From positions 1 to 64,000 of the IMG/VR virus record IMGVR_UViG_3300034159_000051: a DNA stretch of 64,000 nt, one strand, 5' to 3'. The notes beneath the pieces were generated by a model. That model had not been told where the DNA came from, ran no database searches, and saw nothing but the letters and a program-made list of their open reading frames with translations. Each line of letters begins with the position of its first letter. Within the stretch, counting starts at the first letter, position 1. Shown piece after piece: positions 1 through 45,791 of the stretch. Source of the DNA: a virus. A program made the position numbers and the translations under genes.

Positions 1-89
1 ACGCCGCTCTTGGCGACCAGCCGAAGCGTAAGCGTGGACGCCCGCGCAAATCCAACGCGGACACCGGCCCATGCCCGAGCCAAGTCTGA
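1..89 (+). CDS. C-terminal end of upstream gene, probably portal protein (partial)
   Basis: A frame is open from the window edge to a TGA at 87-89. The last ~28 residues include a basic AT-hook-like stretch, KRKRGRPRKS, then a short polar tail. The end overlaps the minor head gene by 19 nt. In phages with DUF2213 protease and DUF2184 capsid genes, the portal normally lies just before the minor head gene, so portal is inferred from position only; the visible residues cannot prove it. Confidence 0.5.
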   Translation, partial: AALGDQPKRKRGRPRKSNADTGPCPSQV

Positions 90-1030
90 AACCTCGTAAG
101 AGCGCCAGAACGGGGGAAAGGGTTCTGCGCGGCGTTCGGCCGTGCGCGGGGCTTGAAGCCGCCTATAGGTCGCGCCTCGTTGCGCTCGTGGCGAAAATCC
201 ACAGGAGCGTCCTTTGGTGGACGCGGGCCGAGTACAGGAAGCACCCGCCCGCCATCGTGCAGGACGGAAGCAATATTGCTTTTGTCAATATTGCTCAAGA
301 CGCCTCGCCATTCGAGTGGATGCGACGCATCCTCGCTCAACTCCGCAAGCGTTGGCTTAAAGCCATCGAGGCGACGGCGCCGAAGCTGGCGGAATATTAC
401 GCGCTGGCGGTCGGGAAGCGCGTCGACACAGATCTGCAGAAAATTCTGCGGGATGGCGGGTTTTTGATCGACTTCCAGGCGACCAAGGCGATGCGCGACG
501 TGCGCGCCGCGTCGATCGCGGAGAATGTGAGCCTGATCAGGTCGATCCCAGAGCAGTATTTTACGCAGATCGAGGGGATCATAAGCCGGGGTTACGCGCA
601 AGGCTACGACCTCAAGCGGGTCACGGACGCCCTGCAGGAGCGGTTCAAGGTCACGCGCAAGCGGGCGGCCTTCATCGCGCGCGATCAGGGCAACAAACTG
701 AACGCGCAGCTAACGCGGGCGCGCTATCTCGAATCCGGGATCACGCACGCCATCTGGCGGCACTCAATGGCCGGGAAAGAGCCGCGCCGGACGCATATCG
801 AAATGGACGGCGAGCCGTTCGACCTCGCCGAGGGCATGTACGACCCGGACCCAAAGGTGCGTCGGCATATTCACCCGGGCGAGCTGATCAACTGCCGCTG
901 CATCGCCCGGCCGATCGTGCCATTCGGGCGCGCGTGGGCGAACAACAACCCGCCGCGCTCGGTTCAGTTCGTCAAGCCGGTGCGTGAACAGAAAGTCTAT
1001 AAGGGCGGCCATCCGAAGGCGACCGCCTAG
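71..1030 (+). CDS. Minor head protein (Mu gpF / SPP1 gp7 head morphogenesis family)
   Basis: 319 residues. The C-terminal half carries the family signature: TRKRAAFIARDQ near residues 195-206, the ARYLESGITHAIWRHS strand, and HPGELINCRCIARP with N274-C275-R276-C277. Proteins of this family sit inside or at the portal vertex of the procapsid and help head assembly and sometimes DNA ejection. It follows the probable portal and precedes the maturation protease, the standard order. The ATG at 71 is within the end of the previous gene, suggesting translational coupling. The N-terminal ~50 residues are unusually basic. Confidence 0.85.
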   Translation: MPEPSLKPRKSARTGERVLRGVRPCAGLEAAYRSRLVALVAKIHRSVLWWTRAEYRKHPPAIVQDGSNIAFVNIAQDASPFEWMRRILAQLRKRWLKAIEATAPKLAEYYALAVGKRVDTDLQKILRDGGFLIDFQATKAMRDVRAASIAENVSLIRSIPEQYFTQIEGIISRGYAQGYDLKRVTDALQERFKVTRKRAAFIARDQGNKLNAQLTRARYLESGITHAIWRHSMAGKEPRRTHIEMDGEPFDLAEGMYDPDPKVRRHIHPGELINCRCIARPIVPFGRAWANNNPPRSVQFVKPVREQKVYKGGHPKATA

Positions 1031-1225: not shown

Positions 1226-3256
1226 ATGGATATGATGCAGCATATCGCGGACGCAGTCGAAGCGTGGCGAAGCCACACGGGCGAGCGATCTACAGAAGGA
1301 GCAGCGCTCGCCTTCGACTACTCCGCCCGGTCCATCGACCAGGACGGGCATATGTATGTCACGAACTGCCTCCTGACCAAGGGCGTCGTGAACCCATACA
1401 AGGGATCGGAGATCCCAGACTACAAAGCTCTTGGTCTCAAAGCCAACGAGATTTATCAGCTTTACCGCGATCCAAAGGAACTGGAGAAGGGCGTCGCCAC
1501 GCTCCAGGGCAAGCCGCTGCTTCTCGATCATCAGCCGATCAGCGCGGACGATCACCCGAACCGGATCGTTGTCGGCACCATCATGAATCCGTTTTTCGCC
1601 GATGGGGAAATCCATGGCGACCTCGTCGTCTGGAAGAAGGATGCGATCGACGAGATCGAAGATGGATCGAAGAGGGAGTTGTCGTGCGGCTACCGCTATA
1701 AGCCGATCATGCAGGCCGGGCAGACGCCCGGCGGCGAGCAGTATGACGGCCGCATGACCGAAATTCAGTTCAACCATGTTGCGCTTGTCGCCGAGGGGCG
1801 CGTATCCGGCGCCATCGTTGCGGATTCCGCCGTCGAACTCGTATGGCTCAAATTAGGTAAGCTTATATCGGAAGCATTCTCCGTAGGTTCTGAGGATGAG
1901 CAATGGGTCGCACTAAGCCTTGCACTTGATGCTTGGAACGAGCAGGCGCATCCTCGCGGCGGAAATCCTGGCAACAAAGGCCAATTCAGCAAGGGATCAG
2001 GTGGAGGCGCAGCACCTGCGCCAGCGCGGTCTTCACGCCGAAGAAGCGGTACACCCCGAGCCGAACTCATCCGGCAAGCTCAAACCTTTGGCATGAGTTT
2101 TCATCGGGCCTCGCATAAGCGTGTGGCGGTGCTTGAGAAGGCAGTGGCGCTACTTCGCGGCGAAGCGGCTCCACGGGCTGAAGCGCCATCAATCCCCGTA
2201 GCAACGCAGGCTCCATCAGTCACACGGGCGACACCGGCTCCGCAGCGGGAATCAGAGCAGCGCCCCAGTACGCAATCACGCGCCAGCAAGAAGGAGCTTC
2301 TTAAGTCTCTCCTCGAAAAGACCGGCAAAAATCCTCTCAAAAAGCTCAAGGAGAAGGGTTTTGAGCCGACCAAGAAGTCCGTCTATTACATGGACAAGGT
2401 GGAGTTGCAAAAGGCGCTTGAGCACCTTGAGAAGAAGGATGGTAAGTCCGAGCGTGCAACGCCTCCCGCTCCCGCTGCGCCGAGACTAACACCGATCCAA
2501 GAAAAGGTTCAAAAGGCTTTCGAGAAAAAGGTAACCGATCTGAAGCCTGCGGACTTCGACGGATACCTTGGCGCGGGTGAGCGAACTAATAGAAGTTTTC
2601 CGGCGCTTGCCCAAAAGCGCAAACTTGCAGCCCTCTTTAACACTTATATCAAAATCAACCCGGGATACTTTACCGATTGCATGACGCATGGCTTGAATGC
2701 CAGAACTATCCTTAGCCCGAGCCAATACGGTGAGACTTTGGCGGTTGTAGGGTCATTTGGCATTGGCGGCAGCATGACCCGGCGTTTTAATTTTGCAAAC
2801 AAATCCGTCGAGCACTCCTATCTTCAGATGCCAAGCGGGCAACAAGGCGGCGGAACAGCCAAGAAACTTTTTCAATCTCAGGTTGAGACTTATAAGCAAT
2901 TAGGGTTGGAGAAAGTTGGGGTTCATGCTAATATAGATGTCGGGTCCTACTGCTGGGCGAAATACGGTTTTATACCAAGGCAGGATAGCTGGGACCAATT
3001 TAGGGGTGAGATGAAGAGTAAGTTAGAACGTCTTTCTGCTGTTCATTCCGATACAAAGGAAAGAGTTAAGCTTATTCTCAATTCATCAGACCCAAAAGCG
3101 ATTTGGGCTTTATCAGACTTGCCGGATACTCATATGTCTAATGGGGAGAAAAAATCCGTCGCCAAAAGCCTGATGATGAACGAGCACTGGTATGCCGACT
3201 TGAACCTGAAAAACGAAGACGCGATGAAAAGATTCAACAATTATGTCAACCGATAA
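1226..3256 (+). CDS. DUF2213 prohead protease-like protein with C-terminal GNAT-like domain
   Basis: 676 residues in three parts. Residues ~1-205 match DUF2213, the phage maturation protease/scaffold family (GKPLLLDHQPISADDHP, KRELSCGYRYKP, QFNHVALVAEGR). A Gly/Ser linker around 236-270 holds HPRGGNPGNKGQFSKG, a motif often seen before variable C-terminal domains in phage head proteins. Residues ~350-405 are a Lys-rich helical, SAP-like segment. The last ~200 residues look like an N-acetyltransferase fold: HSYLQMP strand, QQGGGTAKKLF as the acetyl-CoA loop, then DVGSYCWAKYGF. DNA from about 2570 to 3240 is visibly more AT-rich than its neighbours, suggesting the C-terminal part was acquired. 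DUF2213 proteins usually continue into a scaffold; here the scaffold-like part is the separate gene at 3592. The DUF2213 call is firm; the acetyltransferase call rests on motif pattern only. Confidence 0.8.
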   Translation: MDMMQHIADAVEAWRSHTGERSTEGAALAFDYSARSIDQDGHMYVTNCLLTKGVVNPYKGSEIPDYKALGLKANEIYQLYRDPKELEKGVATLQGKPLLLDHQPISADDHPNRIVVGTIMNPFFADGEIHGDLVVWKKDAIDEIEDGSKRELSCGYRYKPIMQAGQTPGGEQYDGRMTEIQFNHVALVAEGRVSGAIVADSAVELVWLKLGKLISEAFSVGSEDEQWVALSLALDAWNEQAHPRGGNPGNKGQFSKGSGGGAAPAPARSSRRRSGTPRAELIRQAQTFGMSFHRASHKRVAVLEKAVALLRGEAAPRAEAPSIPVATQAPSVTRATPAPQRESEQRPSTQSRASKKELLKSLLEKTGKNPLKKLKEKGFEPTKKSVYYMDKVELQKALEHLEKKDGKSERATPPAPAAPRLTPIQEKVQKAFEKKVTDLKPADFDGYLGAGERTNRSFPALAQKRKLAALFNTYIKINPGYFTDCMTHGLNARTILSPSQYGETLAVVGSFGIGGSMTRRFNFANKSVEHSYLQMPSGQQGGGTAKKLFQSQVETYKQLGLEKVGVHANIDVGSYCWAKYGFIPRQDSWDQFRGEMKSKLERLSAVHSDTKERVKLILNSSDPKAIWALSDLPDTHMSNGEKKSVAKSLMMNEHWYADLNLKNEDAMKRFNNYVNR

Positions 3257-3485
3257 AGGCAAAGCCGCCAAGCCAGAAGAAGGCGGAAACGAGCTGTTCT
3301 ACCTGGACGAGAACGGCAAGAAGCAAGACGCCTCGCTTCACGATGAAATTATGAAGGGCGCGGAAGACGAGCCGGGCGCGTTCGATGATCTTATCGAGAG
3401 CCTCGGGTTGTCCGAGAAGTTTGCAGAGACCTTCAAAGACAAGGATTATTCGCCCGCGAAAGAAAAACCGTCTCGCTCTCAATGA
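3243..3485 (+). CDS. Small acidic protein coupled to the DUF2213-GNAT gene
   Basis: 80 residues, strongly acidic in the middle and basic at the end. No family recognised. The ATG lies 14 nt inside the preceding gene, so the two are translationally coupled, and a strong terminator follows at 3533. Tight coupling to a gene with an acquired enzyme-like domain would fit a partner or neutralising protein, but that is inference; a small head accessory protein is equally possible. Confidence 0.65.
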   Translation: MSTDKGKAAKPEEGGNELFYLDENGKKQDASLHDEIMKGAEDEPGAFDDLIESLGLSEKFAETFKDKDYSPAKEKPSRSQ

Positions 3486-3532
3486 TGGCCGCCGCCAAAA
3501 AGTAAGCATCTTCTAAACAAGATAAAATTTAA

Positions 3533-3557
3533 AGCCCGCTTCGGCGGGCTTTTTTTG
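3533..3557 (+). terminator. Rho-independent terminator
   Basis: Seven-base-pair stem AGCCCGC/GCGGGCT with a TTCG tetraloop, followed by an uninterrupted T run. It separates the protease unit from the scaffold and capsid unit. Confidence 0.9.
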
Positions 3558-3591
3558 TGCCTGCGTTCCAAACCTTCCCAAGGAAAGAGAA

Positions 3592-4713
3592 ATGACACAA
3601 CCGATCGTTGACGCGCTTCGGAAGCGGTTCAAATCGCCCGAGGCCGTATTGAGCGCGCTCGGCCTCGATGAGGCTTTGCTGCGCGGCGGCGGCACCGAAA
3701 AGCGCTCAGCGGTCGCCGAAGCGCTTAAGGCCGCCATCAAGACCAAGACCGGCATCGCCCAGGACGCCGAGCTTAGCGACCTCCTGGAGATGCTCGACGC
3801 TCTCAAAGCTACGCAGGAAAGCGCGCTCAAGGAAATCGGCGCCGTTGAGGCCGAGGCCCAAGAAGAAGTCGGCGAAGAGGAGGTTGGTGAAAAAGCGGCC
3901 AGCCTATTCGGCGGCGAGGGCGGCGGCGAGGAGGAGCGCGACGACGAGTACGAACCCGATAAACCCGCCAAAACCGAAGAGGATTCAAAGGATATGGCCG
4001 GAATGGAAGGCAACGCCGGGATTCCGGCTCTGGCCGAAGAGGACAAAAGGGACGAGCCGGCCGCCGAGGAGGAGGTTTCGACCGACGGCGATCCGGCTAC
4101 CCGGCTGCATATGCTTCTCAAGGGCAAGTTGTCCCAGGAAGAGATGCGCGAAGTCGGAGAAATTCTCGCCGATCTTTCGGGCGGCGAGTCTGAAGAGGAA
4201 GAGCCCGAAGTCGGGGCGGTGGAGCCCGCAAAAGCGGCGGAGCCCGAAAAGACGGAAGAGCCCGTAAAGGCGGAGGATGAGGAGGCCGTATCAATGACCA
4301 AAAGTGGAGCAGGCGCTTCGTCATCCGTCGAAGTGAAAACAGGAACTGAGGAGAAGGCTGCTGGCATGGACGCCGCAATCAAACTGGCCGTCGACACCGC
4401 CCTCAAGGGCGAGCGCGCAAACCAAAAGGCTATCCGCGAAGCAGAGCGCGCGGTGCGCCGCTACATCGGCGAGGTTCCGGCCATGTCGTTCGACTCGGCC
4501 GCTGAAGTTTATCGCCATGCCCTGGTCTCTCTTGGCGTAGAAGGCGCCGACAAGGTTCACGCATCCGCGCTGCCGATCCTTCTGAAGAACCTCCCCGTCC
4601 CTGGCTCGGAGGCGCGCGCCAAGCCCGCCAAATCGCTCGGCATGGATGCGGCTTCCGTCAAGGGTTTCGCCGAGATGTTCCCGAACGCAGCCCGCATCGT
4701 TCGCGCCATCTAA
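3592..4713 (+). CDS. Scaffold-like protein related to the C-terminal half of DUF2213 proteins
   Basis: 373 residues. Residues ~80-235 are a very acidic Glu/Ala/Pro-rich stretch expected to be disordered, typical of internal scaffolds. The last ~110 residues (AEVYRHALVSLGVEG, then a helix ending PNAARIVRAI) resemble the C-terminal region that normally continues from the DUF2213 protease in the same polypeptide. Role inferred: shapes the procapsid and is removed by the protease. AAGGAAAGAG upstream of the ATG is a good ribosome binding site. It directly precedes the cement and capsid genes. A stand-alone scaffold split from its protease is the notable point. Confidence 0.7.
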   Translation: MTQPIVDALRKRFKSPEAVLSALGLDEALLRGGGTEKRSAVAEALKAAIKTKTGIAQDAELSDLLEMLDALKATQESALKEIGAVEAEAQEEVGEEEVGEKAASLFGGEGGGEEERDDEYEPDKPAKTEEDSKDMAGMEGNAGIPALAEEDKRDEPAAEEEVSTDGDPATRLHMLLKGKLSQEEMREVGEILADLSGGESEEEEPEVGAVEPAKAAEPEKTEEPVKAEDEEAVSMTKSGAGASSSVEVKTGTEEKAAGMDAAIKLAVDTALKGERANQKAIREAERAVRRYIGEVPAMSFDSAAEVYRHALVSLGVEGADKVHASALPILLKNLPVPGSEARAKPAKSLGMDAASVKGFAEMFPNAARIVRAI

Positions 4714-4743: not shown

Positions 4744-5727
4744 ATGGGCTTTCAGACGCAGGTCTACGGGCGCAATGCTCCGGCCATCGCCGGTGATTGG
4801 GTCTCTTCGAACCCGTTTTCAACTTATCCTGCCGGCCCCGGCGGGCTTGTCGCGGGCGCTTCCGGCGTAACCGTCGGCCGCTTTGCTTGGGTTTCCCAGG
4901 CCGGGAAGGATTGGGATTCGGCTCCGGCGATCGTCAATAATTCAGTTGGCGTCAGCATCACCTCGCCGAGTGGATTCGTCCATCGCGAGCAGCAGGCGCT
5001 TATCACTGCATACCTCGCAGAATCTGGCTCCGTTGTCCCGCAAGGGCTTATGGTCAATCTTCTGACCTCCGGCGATGTCTGGGTCAAGAACGCCGGTTCG
5101 GGTCAGGCGCTTTTCGGCCATAAGGCATACGCAAGCCTTACGGACGGCTCCGTGACCTTCGCGGCGACGTCTTCGCCGACGACCGCAAGCGCTACGGCGT
5201 CGACCGTCTCCGCAGGCACGGCCGCGACTGCAACCGGGACGATTTCCGGCAATGTGCTCACGACATCCGGCGCGGTGACGAACACCATCTATCCTGGCGC
5301 GGTTGTGACGGGAACCAACGTTGCAACCGGCACCGTGATCGTCGCCCAGCTCTCTGGCACCACGGGCGGCGCCGGAACCTACGCCGTTAATATCGGCGAG
5401 CAGACCGTTGCATCGACGACTTTGACCGCAACGCCAAGCGTCCTTGACACTACAAGCGGCACCGTGACCGGCACGGTTGCGATCGGGGGCATGATTGCTT
5501 CCGCATCGACGGGCACAACCGGAACAGTGGTCGGCATGGCCGTGACCGCCGTCTACGCGGCTACGGACGGAAAATGGGTCGTCGCTCCGGCCCAAGGCGC
5601 GACCGCCGTCGGGTCGAATACGAGCGCCACGATCACCGTCCAGTCAAACATCGAAACCAAGTGGTTCGCTGTTTCGGAAGGCCTTGCTGGCGAGGTCGTG
5701 AAGATTTCATCGCAGACCCTTGGTTAA
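4744..5727 (+). CDS. Capsid cement/decoration protein with inserted beta module
   Basis: 327 residues. The first ~140 residues resemble structural cement proteins found just before DUF2184 capsids (VTVGRFAWVS, LITAYLAESG, VPQGLMVNLLTSGDVWVKN) and the ending resumes that fold (WFAVSEGLAGEVVKISS). Between them, residues ~164-230 are a Thr/Gly-rich module found in four other proteins of this window (see repeat at 5233). Expected to bind the outer capsid surface and stabilise it. It lies 25 nt before the major capsid gene. Confidence 0.7.
   Translation: MGFQTQVYGRNAPAIAGDWVSSNPFSTYPAGPGGLVAGASGVTVGRFAWVSQAGKDWDSAPAIVNNSVGVSITSPSGFVHREQQALITAYLAESGSVVPQGLMVNLLTSGDVWVKNAGSGQALFGHKAYASLTDGSVTFAATSSPTTASATASTVSAGTAATATGTISGNVLTTSGAVTNTIYPGAVVTGTNVATGTVIVAQLSGTTGGAGTYAVNIGEQTVASTTLTATPSVLDTTSGTVTGTVAIGGMIASASTGTTGTVVGMAVTAVYAATDGKWVVAPAQGATAVGSNTSATITVQSNIETKWFAVSEGLAGEVVKISSQTLG
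5233..5433 (+). repeat. Thr/Gly-rich beta module, copy 1 (in cement protein)
   Basis: About 67 codons encoding a pattern shared by five proteins here: G-x-I-x-G-x-x-L-T, then G-x-V-V-T-G, V-x-x-G-T-x-I, a Gly-rich turn, GTY-x-V, Q-T-V-A-S-T-T. The other copies are at 11697, 21082, 22177 and 33283. The function of this domain type in phage proteins is not known to me. Confidence 0.75.
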
Positions 5728-5752: not shown

Positions 5753-6859
5753 ATGAATATTCAGGAATCCAGGGCGGCCTGGAAAGCCTACGGCCCGACG
5801 CTCGCCGAAAAGGGCATCGTGTTTATGGAGCCCGTCCATGGCTTCGCAACCGATGAACTGAAGCGCAATTACGCGCTCGCGCTCGACGCGCAGCCTGTGC
5901 TTTCGACATCGGCGAACGCGGGCATCCCGGCGCTGCTCACCACTTACATCGATCCCGAAGTGGTCAATATCGCCTTCGCCGCCCTTAAGGCCGCCGAAAT
6001 CCTTGGCGAACGCAAAACGGGCGATTGGCTGACAGAGACGGCGATGTTCCCGGTCGTGGAAGCTACCGGCGAAGTCACCACGTATGGCGACTATAACCAA
6101 ACCGGATCGACCGGCGTCAACACCAACTGGCCCCAACGCCAGAGCTACCACTTCCAGACGATGGTCCGGTATGGCGAGCGCGAAATGGAGCGAGCCGGCC
6201 TCGCCCGAATCAATTGGGTGTCGTCTCTCAACAAAGCCGCAGCGATGGTCCTCAATCGCTACAGCAACTACACGTATTTCTACGGCGTCGCAGGCCTTCA
6301 GAATTACGGCCTCCTGAATGATCCCAACTTGCCAGCCAGCCTGACCCCAGGCACCAAGGCGAATTATGGCACGTCCGGGTCGAACGGGTGGATCACCTCC
6401 GGCGGCGCCATCAACGCCACCGCGAACGAGGTCTATGCTGATTTCCAGTCTCTCTTTTATCAGCTCGTATCTCAGACGCTCGGACTCGTGAAAGAGGATG
6501 ACAAGCTCGTCCTGGCGCTTTCGCCGCAGTCCGCTGTCGCGCTCACGATCACCAACTCCTTCGGCGTCAACGTCATGGAGCTGATCAAGGCGCAGTTCCC
6601 GAATGTGCGGATCGAGAAGGCGACGCAGTACGCCATGCGGTCCTCAATCAATCCAGAAGGCGTGGCGGCCGGAAACTATATCCAGCTCATCGCCGAGGAG
6701 ATCGAGGGCGAGGGAACTGGCTACGCTGCGTTCACGGAAAAGCTGCGGATGCACAAGCTGATCCCTGACACATCGTCCTTCAAGCAGAAGGCGACGTCTG
6801 GGAGCTGGGGCTTTGTTCTGAAAAAGCCTCTTGCCGTCGCTTCGATGGTTGGCGTCTGA
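5753..6859 (+). CDS. Major capsid protein (DUF2184 family)
   Basis: 368 residues from the ATG at 5753, chosen because AGGAGA lies 8 nt upstream; an in-frame GTG-type start at 5720 inside the previous gene has no such site. The protein shows the DUF2184 capsid pattern: AGIPALLTTYIDPEVV near the N terminus, YGDYNQTGSTGVN, YHFQTMVRYGEREMERA, then the C-terminal GTGYAAFTEKLRMHKLIPD segment. It builds the icosahedral shell. Position after scaffold and cement genes, and a hairpin terminator just downstream, are as expected for a highly expressed capsid gene. Confidence 0.92.
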   Translation: MNIQESRAAWKAYGPTLAEKGIVFMEPVHGFATDELKRNYALALDAQPVLSTSANAGIPALLTTYIDPEVVNIAFAALKAAEILGERKTGDWLTETAMFPVVEATGEVTTYGDYNQTGSTGVNTNWPQRQSYHFQTMVRYGEREMERAGLARINWVSSLNKAAAMVLNRYSNYTYFYGVAGLQNYGLLNDPNLPASLTPGTKANYGTSGSNGWITSGGAINATANEVYADFQSLFYQLVSQTLGLVKEDDKLVLALSPQSAVALTITNSFGVNVMELIKAQFPNVRIEKATQYAMRSSINPEGVAAGNYIQLIAEEIEGEGTGYAAFTEKLRMHKLIPDTSSFKQKATSGSWGFVLKKPLAVASMVGV

Positions 6860-44825: not shown

Positions 44826-45791
44826 TTAGTCCGCCACTATGGCGCTAAGAGCCGCGGCGACTTGTCCGCCGTGGTCTGCTCTATTGTCATCATACCGCAG
44901 AATCGTTTTTATATCCAAGTGTCTAGAGAACTTTCCAACCTTTCTGAAATCGCCGCCAAAAACATCGAGCGCCGCGGTGATGGCGCTATGGCGCAGGCCG
45001 TGCGGACGCGCAATGATGCCGATCTCCTCGCCAAGCTTCCGCACGATCTTATGGATGGCGGACCCGCTGAGTCTTGTATGCGTCGGAGGCGTCGAGAGGC
45101 TGATAAAGAGCGGAGCGTCCGCCGCATCGTCGCCGCGCAGGGCGAGCCACGCCGCCAGGGCGTCGCGTACAACCCCGGCCGGGAGCGTCAATGTCTCGCG
45201 CTCGCTTCGCCCCTTTCCCATTATCGAAAGCGTTCCGTTGAGGTCGACATGCCCGACATTGAGGCTGGCGATCTCCCCTCTCCGAAGCCCGAGGCCAAAA
45301 CCCAACAGCAGAATCGCGACGTCGCGCGCCGCCTTGTTCGGGTTCTTGTGCTCGCCAGCCGCCTTGATCATTTTTCGGACGTTGGCGACCCCAGGCCCCC
45401 GCGTATCGCGGTAGGCTTGCGTAGCCTCCCCCTTGATCTCCAGGCGCAGCTCTGTCGCCCCGAACCCGCGAGCGGCCGTCACGAATGAATTCAGCGCGAA
45501 CAGGCTGCGATTGATCGAGGATGGCGACAAGCCCTCCTTGAGTTTATTCTGCCTCCATGCAGCTACTACGGCGCGGGCTTGGCCATCATCAAGAGCAAGA
45601 AACCACCGGATCGCATCAGCAAGATCGCCAGCCTTTACAAAGGAAGCAAACGCCTTCAATTCATATTTGTAAGCGCGCTTCGTATTGTCCGAGGGGAACC
45701 CGGCCAGCCATAGGCCGAGCGCCGTTTCGGCGGTAATATCCTGGGTAAGCGTCAGGCTACGCCCTTGGCTTATCTCAATTAGATCGTTCAC
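44826..45791 (-). CDS. int: Tyrosine recombinase / integrase
   Basis: 321 residues. An N-terminal SAM-like core-binding region (NTKRAYKYELKAFASFV) is followed by the catalytic domain with a full active site: R in GLRRGEIASL, K in MGKGRSERE, H-x-x-R in RPHGLRHS, H in FSRHLDIKT and Y in ILRYDDN. It should integrate and excise the phage genome at an attachment site, which was not identified. The gene is next to the convergent point between the late and early regions, a common site for integrases. It starts by overlap with the stop of the upstream gene. Confidence 0.93.
   Translation of the reverse strand: MNDLIEISQGRSLTLTQDITAETALGLWLAGFPSDNTKRAYKYELKAFASFVKAGDLADAIRWFLALDDGQARAVVAAWRQNKLKEGLSPSSINRSLFALNSFVTAARGFGATELRLEIKGEATQAYRDTRGPGVANVRKMIKAAGEHKNPNKAARDVAILLLGFGLGLRRGEIASLNVGHVDLNGTLSIMGKGRSERETLTLPAGVVRDALAAWLALRGDDAADAPLFISLSTPPTHTRLSGSAIHKIVRKLGEEIGIIARPHGLRHSAITAALDVFGGDFRKVGKFSRHLDIKTILRYDDNRADHGGQVAAALSAIVAD

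What the first reader, a model, noticed from the sequence alone, without database searches (positions are those of the whole stretch)
1226..4713. Maturation protease split from its scaffold and fused to an acetyltransferase-like cargo domain
DUF2213 proteins usually run from protease into scaffold. Here the scaffold-like tail is a separate gene (3592), and the protease instead continues through a HPRGGNPGNKGQFSKG linker into a GNAT-like domain encoded by AT-richer DNA, followed by an overlapping small acidic gene. The domain could be packaged in the head and ejected into the host, where it would modify a host molecule, with the small gene as a possible partner.
Basis: partly seen in the sequence, partly recalled or inferred. 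Interest (0 to 1): 0.75.

Follow-up and report, generated by a model that had tools for sequence, protein, structure and literature searches.

The report
Acetyltransferase-fold cargo on phage head protease
A bacterial virus has attached an acetyltransferase-like enzyme, with its own small partner gene, to the protease that matures its head; the same enzyme-plus-partner unit sits on other head proteins in other phages, so it is probably a swappable payload delivered into the host with the viral DNA.

Summary
ORF 1226-3256 is an intact DUF2213 head-maturation protease followed by an HPR..GQF linker and a C-terminal domain. That domain is predicted as a GNAT fold with high confidence (pLDDT 94, pTM 0.90; every listed PDB match is an acetyltransferase). 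Protease and scaffold share one ORF in 84 of 92 DUF2213 relatives but are separate here, and none of the 92 carries the GNAT. The GNAT is not a protease part. The whole module (linker, spacer, GNAT) is 39-42% identical to the C-terminus of portal proteins in two other phages, behind the same linker. The GNAT family also sits at either end of MuF head proteins, beside a second protease family, and at the C-terminus of actinobacterial T7SS (secreted-toxin type) proteins. The small acidic gene 3243 is a real, conserved partner: 88 of 90 relatives abut a GNAT ORF, and all nine loci found by searching with the small gene have the GNAT directly upstream. One correction: the split is probably independent of, and older than, the cargo. 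Best explanation: a modular, virion-packaged acetyltransferase effector. Packaging, ejection, activity, target and the partner's role are inferred, not shown. Known kind (MuF/polyvalent head effectors), new variant.

The parts
71..1030 (+). MuF-type minor head protein, without cargo in this phage
   Evidence: Pfam Phage_Mu_F E 1.7e-10; phrog_324 head morphogenesis E 1e-72
1226..3256 (+). Fusion gene, 676 aa: DUF2213 maturation protease + linker + spacer + GNAT-like cargo domain
1328..1813 (+). DUF2213 protease core; residues invariant among relatives are kept, including His in LLLDHQP, Ser in RELSCGYRY and the NHVAL His
1949..1996 (+). Linker HPRGGNPGNKGQFSKG, same type as in portal-GNAT fusions L020/L021/L032 and many other head fusions
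2282..2455 (+). Lysine-rich helical spacer (aa 353-410) conserved with L020/L021 portal fusions
   Evidence: BLASTP alignment
2645..3253 (+). GNAT-fold cargo domain (aa 474-676), with a helical insertion after the GSYCWAKYGF segment
   Evidence: AF2 pLDDT 94.3, pTM 0.90; PDB matches all acetyltransferases
2843..2860 (+). GNAT motif A, QGGGTA (Q540-A545), pattern Q/R-x-x-G-x-G/A, acyl-CoA binding loop by analogy
   Evidence: Q/R 56/69, G543 59/69
2942..2971 (+). Family signature GSYCWAKYGF; G573, Y575, W577, G581, F582 invariant in 69/69
3243..3485 (+). Small acidic partner gene (80 aa), overlapping the fusion gene by 14 nt
   Evidence: conserved next to GNAT ORFs
3531..3552 (+). Intrinsic-terminator-like hairpin (9 pairs, then T-run) between cassette and scaffold gene
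   Evidence: such sites are not more frequent than in shuffles in this region
3592..4713 (+). Separate scaffold gene, C-terminal half of the usual protease-scaffold protein
   Evidence: phrog_2229 positions 258-425, E 8e-22; end-to-end relative L207 scaffold
4744..5727 (+). Minor head protein (head operon context)
   Evidence: phrog_2122 E 1e-35
5753..6859 (+). Major head protein (head operon context)
   Evidence: phrog_264 E 9e-65

Best explanation
The C-terminal 435 residues of the protease gene, plus the overlapping small gene, are a mobile effector cassette: linker, spacer, GNAT-fold acetyltransferase and small partner. Phages graft it onto whichever head protein reaches the inside of the capsid: portal, MuF or maturation protease. 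Here it sits on the native C-terminus of a protease whose scaffold was already a separate gene. The protease carries it into the prohead. The cargo is then freed at or near the linker or stays attached, remains inside because it is too large to leave through the shell, and is ejected with the DNA into the next host, where it acylates a host macromolecule to aid takeover or counter defence. The small protein most likely binds the GNAT in the producing cell and keeps it inactive or deliverable. Shown: the fusion, the GNAT fold, exchange of the module between carriers, and the tight link with the small gene. Inferred: packaging, release at the linker, ejection, catalysis, target, and the partner's inhibitor or chaperone role.
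For: GNAT fold: AF2 pLDDT 94.3, all listed Foldseek and VIA rows are acetyltransferases, best Z 8.1, motif A and family signature kept. Modularity: aa 239-676 is 42% and 39% identical to the C-terminus of portal proteins L020/L021 with the same linker (E 3e-89, 2e-81). The same GNAT family is C-terminal on 48 MuF proteins and N-terminal on 8, on further portals, beside a Peptidase_S78-capsid polyprotein (L226), and on T7SS/WXG proteins. GNAT was found in none of 92 DUF2213 relatives. Partner: 88/90 small-family hits abut a GNAT ORF; an independent small-seeded scan gave 9/9 with GNAT upstream. DUF2213 proteases carry other predicted effectors too: ART+Nudix in L207, Nudix in L199 and L202. Literature: head-packaged ART/GNAT/InPase polyvalent proteins (PMC5512222); Nudix fused to MuF, portal and capsid-processing peptidase (PMC9503650); GNAT Rac acting on host RNA polymerase (cited in PMC7824862).
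Against: No virion proteomics, activity or target data. GNAT-on-DUF2213 is seen once, in one metagenome-derived contig. Foldseek E-values are modest (best 1.2e-3) and Z middling, because of the insertions. Motif A is degenerate in some relatives (strict pattern in 32 of 69). About 60% of GNAT relatives lack the small gene. In several loci (L033, L039, L048, L099) the small domain runs on into another linker or cargo, which sits awkwardly with a pure immunity role. AF2 gives no confident fold for the small protein alone (pLDDT 67). Proteases and scaffolds normally leave the capsid, so retention of the cargo is an assumption.
Confidence: 0.66

Rival explanations
1. Polymorphic toxin with immunity: the GNAT is an antibacterial toxin of a temperate phage, used against competitors when virions or lysates reach them, and the small protein is classical immunity for the lysogen.
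For: [quoted passage not shown] same GNAT on T7SS/WXG proteins; integrase in this record; L022 has two small genes in tandem. Bxa, a MuF-family toxin of a Bacteroides prophage, has cognate immunity proteins (PMC11699363).
Against: The GNAT also occurs on head proteins of Abidjanvirus isolates Lucjan and AIIMS-Plu-RaNi, a genus I know as virulent (own knowledge), and those have no small-family gene. The late head operon is not normally expressed in a lysogen. The small domain is fused to further cargo in some loci.
Confidence: 0.2
2. Virion-internal role: the GNAT-fold domain acts during assembly (acetylating capsid or protease, or as an inert folding or scaffold-like module) and is never delivered.
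For: It is attached to assembly proteins only in the phages; the protease is an assembly enzyme; motif A is degenerate in some members.
Against: Exchange among portal, MuF, protease and T7SS carriers and absence from 92 DUF2213 relatives argue against a required assembly role; the same position holds ART, Nudix and pyrophosphatase domains in relatives.
Confidence: 0.1
3. Metagenome assembly chimera joining a protease gene to a portal-type cargo module.
For: Single example on DUF2213; GC drops from 57-63% to 47% across the junction.
Against: The ORF is continuous through a canonical linker at the native protease C-terminus, the small gene and a separate scaffold follow in the operon, and the record closes on itself by an exact 127-bp terminal repeat. 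The GC drop falls about 300 nt after the linker, not at the fusion point.
Confidence: 0.03

Closest known systems
Polyvalent proteins of phages (Iyer et al. 2017, PMC5512222), including two RimI-like GNAT families
   Same: GNAT in phage proteins, next to ART domains, predicted to be packaged in the head and injected; pyrophosphatase (InPase)-portal fusions as in L020/L021; L035 here carries ART and GNAT in one polypeptide
   Different: The carrier here is a maturation protease (DUF2213 is not mentioned in that paper); a dedicated small partner gene is part of the unit; whether this GNAT is one of Iyer's two families could not be checked
MuF polymorphic toxins (Jamet et al. 2017, PMC5576092)
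   Same: Variable C-terminal effector on a head protein, small gene directly downstream; 48 relatives of this GNAT are C-terminal on MuF
   Different: GNAT and acetyltransferase are not named there; carrier here is the protease
Nudix domains fused to MuF, portal and capsid-processing serine peptidase (PMC9503650)
   Same: An enzymatic cargo fused to a head-maturation protease; L199, L202 and L207 here show Nudix-DUF2213 fusions
   Different: Nudix rather than GNAT; no partner gene reported in the passages read
GNAT toxins of type II toxin-antitoxin systems (TacT, AtaT2, KacT)
   Same: GNAT fold (Z about 6), small partner encoded next to it
   Different: Those are free-standing proteins with ribbon-helix-helix antitoxins; here the GNAT is fused to a head protein and the partner has no recognised domain
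phiKMV Rac acetyltransferase (cited in PMC7824862)
   Same: Phage GNAT acting on a host macromolecule
   Different: Free-standing protein, not a head fusion

Membership tests
GNAT superfamily | GNAT fold | tested here: met
   AF2 pLDDT 94.3, pTM 0.90; all listed PDB rows are acetyltransferases; profile-sequence best hit 1y9k E 0.0026
GNAT superfamily | Motif A Q/R-x-x-G-x-G/A after strand 4 | tested here: met
   Q540-GGGTA; Q/R in 56/69, G543 in 59/69, A/G/S next
GNAT superfamily | Acyl-CoA binding and acyl transfer | not testable with these tools
   needs purified protein
DUF2213 head-maturation protease | DUF2213/phrog_2229 match with conserved His and Ser | tested here: met
DUF2213 head-maturation protease | Scaffold in the same ORF (usual form, not required) | tested here: not met
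   scaffold is gene 3592-4713; one ORF in 84/92 relatives
MuF polymorphic toxin | MuF domain in the same protein | tested here: not met
   window carrier is DUF2213; relatives of the GNAT are on MuF
MuF polymorphic toxin | Small gene directly downstream | tested here: met
Phage polyvalent / head-packaged effector proteins | Enzymatic effector domain fused to a virion head protein in the packaging operon | tested here: met
Phage polyvalent / head-packaged effector proteins | Packaged in the virion and injected | not testable with these tools
   needs virion mass spectrometry and an ejection assay
Type II TA GNAT toxin (TacT/AtaT/KacT) | Free-standing toxin with RHH antitoxin | tested here: not met
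   fused to head protein; the small protein has no Pfam, PHROG or NCBIfam match

The most novel reading that the evidence does not exclude
A dedicated family of phage-delivered acetyltransferases, with a cognate small regulator, moves as a two-gene cassette between portal, MuF and maturation-protease genes (and into T7SS toxins). Its HPR..GQF linker would be a general release site cut by the maturation protease so that the cargo stays in the head and is ejected.
Probability: 0.3. Interest if true: 0.8.

Novelty: new variant of a known kind. Interest (0 to 1): 0.62.

Why it matters
Head-packaged effectors are how phages act on a cell in the first moments of infection, before any phage gene is expressed; only a few, such as T4 Alt, are understood. 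This work defines a GNAT effector family that Pfam does not cover at its cut-offs, with a tightly linked partner gene, and shows the same unit on three kinds of head proteins and the same domain on actinobacterial secreted proteins. That makes target, inhibitor and packaging signal directly testable, and it points to maturation proteases as an under-noticed carrier class. The swappable linker could also be useful for loading proteins into phage heads.

Tried and rejected
Pfam and NCBIfam on the C-terminal part: only sub-threshold hits, e.g. PSRP-3 and NAPRTase, judged chance. Small-gene alignment A4 too diverse for a database scan; a closer subset worked. AF2 of the small protein alone gave no confident fold. 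Small gene in isolated phage records: only two weak hits, E 0.5, not used. The linker motif is not repeated as a convincing HPR..G[QR]F site in other large proteins of this record. A tree of 104 GNAT domains places the window with L020/L021 (support 94), but half of its branches are weak, so only the nearest neighbours and the clustering of the small gene (15 changes against 27.5 in shuffles) were used. The idea that the insertion itself split protease from scaffold was dropped because L139 and L207 are split without a GNAT. The structure matches do not single out tRNA-acetylating toxins: TacT, AtaT and KacT score no better than other GNATs.

Full report
What is there. The window opens in a phage head operon. 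The record (129,260 bases) ends with the same 127 bases with which it begins, so it is probably a complete circular or circularly permuted genome; the portal gene lies across the record end, with the terminase upstream. The order is terminase, portal, MuF (71-1030), protease fusion (1226-3256), small gene (3243-3485), terminator-like hairpin (3531-3552), scaffold (3592-4713), minor head protein (4744-5727), major head protein (5753-6859). The record carries a tyrosine-recombinase-type integrase, so the phage may be temperate.

The split. PHROG family 2229 describes protease and scaffold as one 428-residue protein. Positions 7-189 match the N-terminus of ORF 1226 and positions 258-425 match gene 3592. 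In 92 DUF2213 loci from viral contigs, 84 have both parts in one ORF, four are cut off by contig ends, and four (L139, L185, L191, L207) are genuinely separate. L185 and L191 carry about 300 extra residues with NPEGxNQYSGG repeats; L207 carries ART and Nudix domains in front of the protease. The window scaffold aligns end to end with the separate scaffold of L207 (31% over 399 aa). So the split form exists without the GNAT and is probably older; the cargo was added to the native C-terminus of an already separate protease (inference).

The cargo. With 69 relatives as alignment, AlphaFold2 gives aa 414-676 a mean pLDDT of 94.3 and pTM of 0.90. All 50 listed Foldseek rows, and all 50 VIA rows (best Z 8.1, 130 residues, 3.5 A), are acetyltransferases of the GNAT superfamily or contain such a domain. 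E-values are modest, and no subgroup stands out. Sequence adds a GNAT motif A (Q540-GGGTA) and an invariant family signature G-x-Y-x-W-x-x-x-G-F. The DNA is 47.2% GC, in the lowest 0.8% of 800-nt windows, with GC3 of 0.51 against 0.70-0.79 for the protease, scaffold and MuF genes, which fits later acquisition.

Exchange between carriers. The module from the linker to the end (aa 239-676) is 42% and 39% identical to the C-terminus of portal proteins in L020 and L021 (E 3e-89 and 2e-81), both with an HPR..G-F linker and with a pyrophosphatase domain between portal and linker. Among 138 distinct GNAT ORFs from viral and bacterial contigs, 48 carry the domain at the C-terminus of MuF, 8 at the N-terminus of MuF, 1 in the middle of MuF, 3 on portals, 1 on DUF2213 (the window), and the rest were not assigned by my profiles. 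Pfam adds portals of the lambda type (L246; three members of a set of 50) and one polyprotein with Peptidase_S78 and capsid (L226). In Nocardia and relatives the domain ends proteins with a T7SS signal or WXG-like domain. In isolates it is N-terminal on MuF of Pseudomonas phage Lucjan and Alteromonas phage R7M. On a GNAT tree the nearest relatives of the window are two portal and two MuF fusions.

The partner. Gene 3243 is not a chance ORF. A profile of it finds 90 ORFs in 2.39 Mb of fetched loci, 88 of them directly after a GNAT ORF; the other two (L226, L267) lie by the end of the GNAT domain in another frame (some loci of the two scans overlap, so 90 counts loci, not independent events). 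Because those loci were fetched with the GNAT, I also searched viral contigs with the small protein: nine loci, all nine with the GNAT directly upstream. 54 of 138 GNAT ORFs have it; the Bacteroidetes MuF, N-terminal MuF and T7SS versions do not. In the T7SS cases the next gene is instead an ADP-ribosylglycohydrolase. The core motif is FYxDExGxxQDAxxHxxIL. Role unknown: inhibitor/immunity is the usual reading, but in L033, L039, L048 and L099 the domain continues into another linker or cargo, so a co-delivered subunit or chaperone is nearly as likely.

Mechanism and limits. Placement on proteins at or inside the head, exchange among them, and replacement by ART, Nudix or pyrophosphatase domains in the same places point to a packaged effector delivered at infection. 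That fits published proposals for polyvalent proteins and MuF fusions (PMC5512222, PMC5576092), and the reported fusion of Nudix domains to MuF, portal and the capsid-processing peptidase (PMC9503650). Nothing here shows packaging, ejection or catalysis. Modification of a host protein is a guess by analogy with Rac. The DUF2213-GNAT fusion itself is a single case; a chimera is unlikely but not formally excluded.

Verdict. The finding is a new variant of a known kind: a GNAT effector cassette with a dedicated partner, on a maturation protease.

Noticed in passing
L113, L115-L117, L120-L124, L126 downstream of the GNAT ORF: Actinobacterial T7SS/WXG proteins ending in this GNAT are followed by a conserved ~470-507 aa ADP-ribosylglycohydrolase gene (PF03747 confirmed in L113 and L115), a possible immunity gene; an ADP-ribose hydrolase beside a GNAT is unexplained.
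   Followed up: partly
L226:3716-7861: One 1382-aa ORF holds GNAT, Peptidase_S78 protease and major capsid domains, with a small-partner reading frame overlapping inside it.
   Followed up: partly
L207:2306-4636, L199:2564-5425, L202:3386-5407: DUF2213 proteases with N-terminal ADP-ribosyltransferase and/or Nudix domains, some behind the same HPR linker: other cargos on the same protease family.
   Followed up: partly
L185:2703-4205 and L191: DUF2213 protease followed by about 300 residues with NPEGxNQYSGG repeats, scaffold separate; nature of the extension unknown.
   Followed up: no
L052:3-5483: MuF-bearing 1827-aa ORF with four copies of a PxGNxxGGQF-type linker, suggesting a string of several cargos ending in the GNAT.
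   Followed up: no
L022:5599-6168: Two small-partner genes in tandem after a MuF-GNAT fusion.
   Followed up: no
L031, L099, L253, L257, L268-L270: GNAT domain interrupted by a long acidic insertion after the GYAWAKYGF segment.
   Followed up: no
window 44880-45380 (-): Tyrosine recombinase (PF00589, E 4e-17): the phage may be temperate.
   Followed up: no
L129:28-2605 (record about 120027-122604): ORFs that look like 7-deazaguanine (queuosine/archaeosine-type) synthesis genes near the record end, by eye from translations; possible DNA modification.
   Followed up: no
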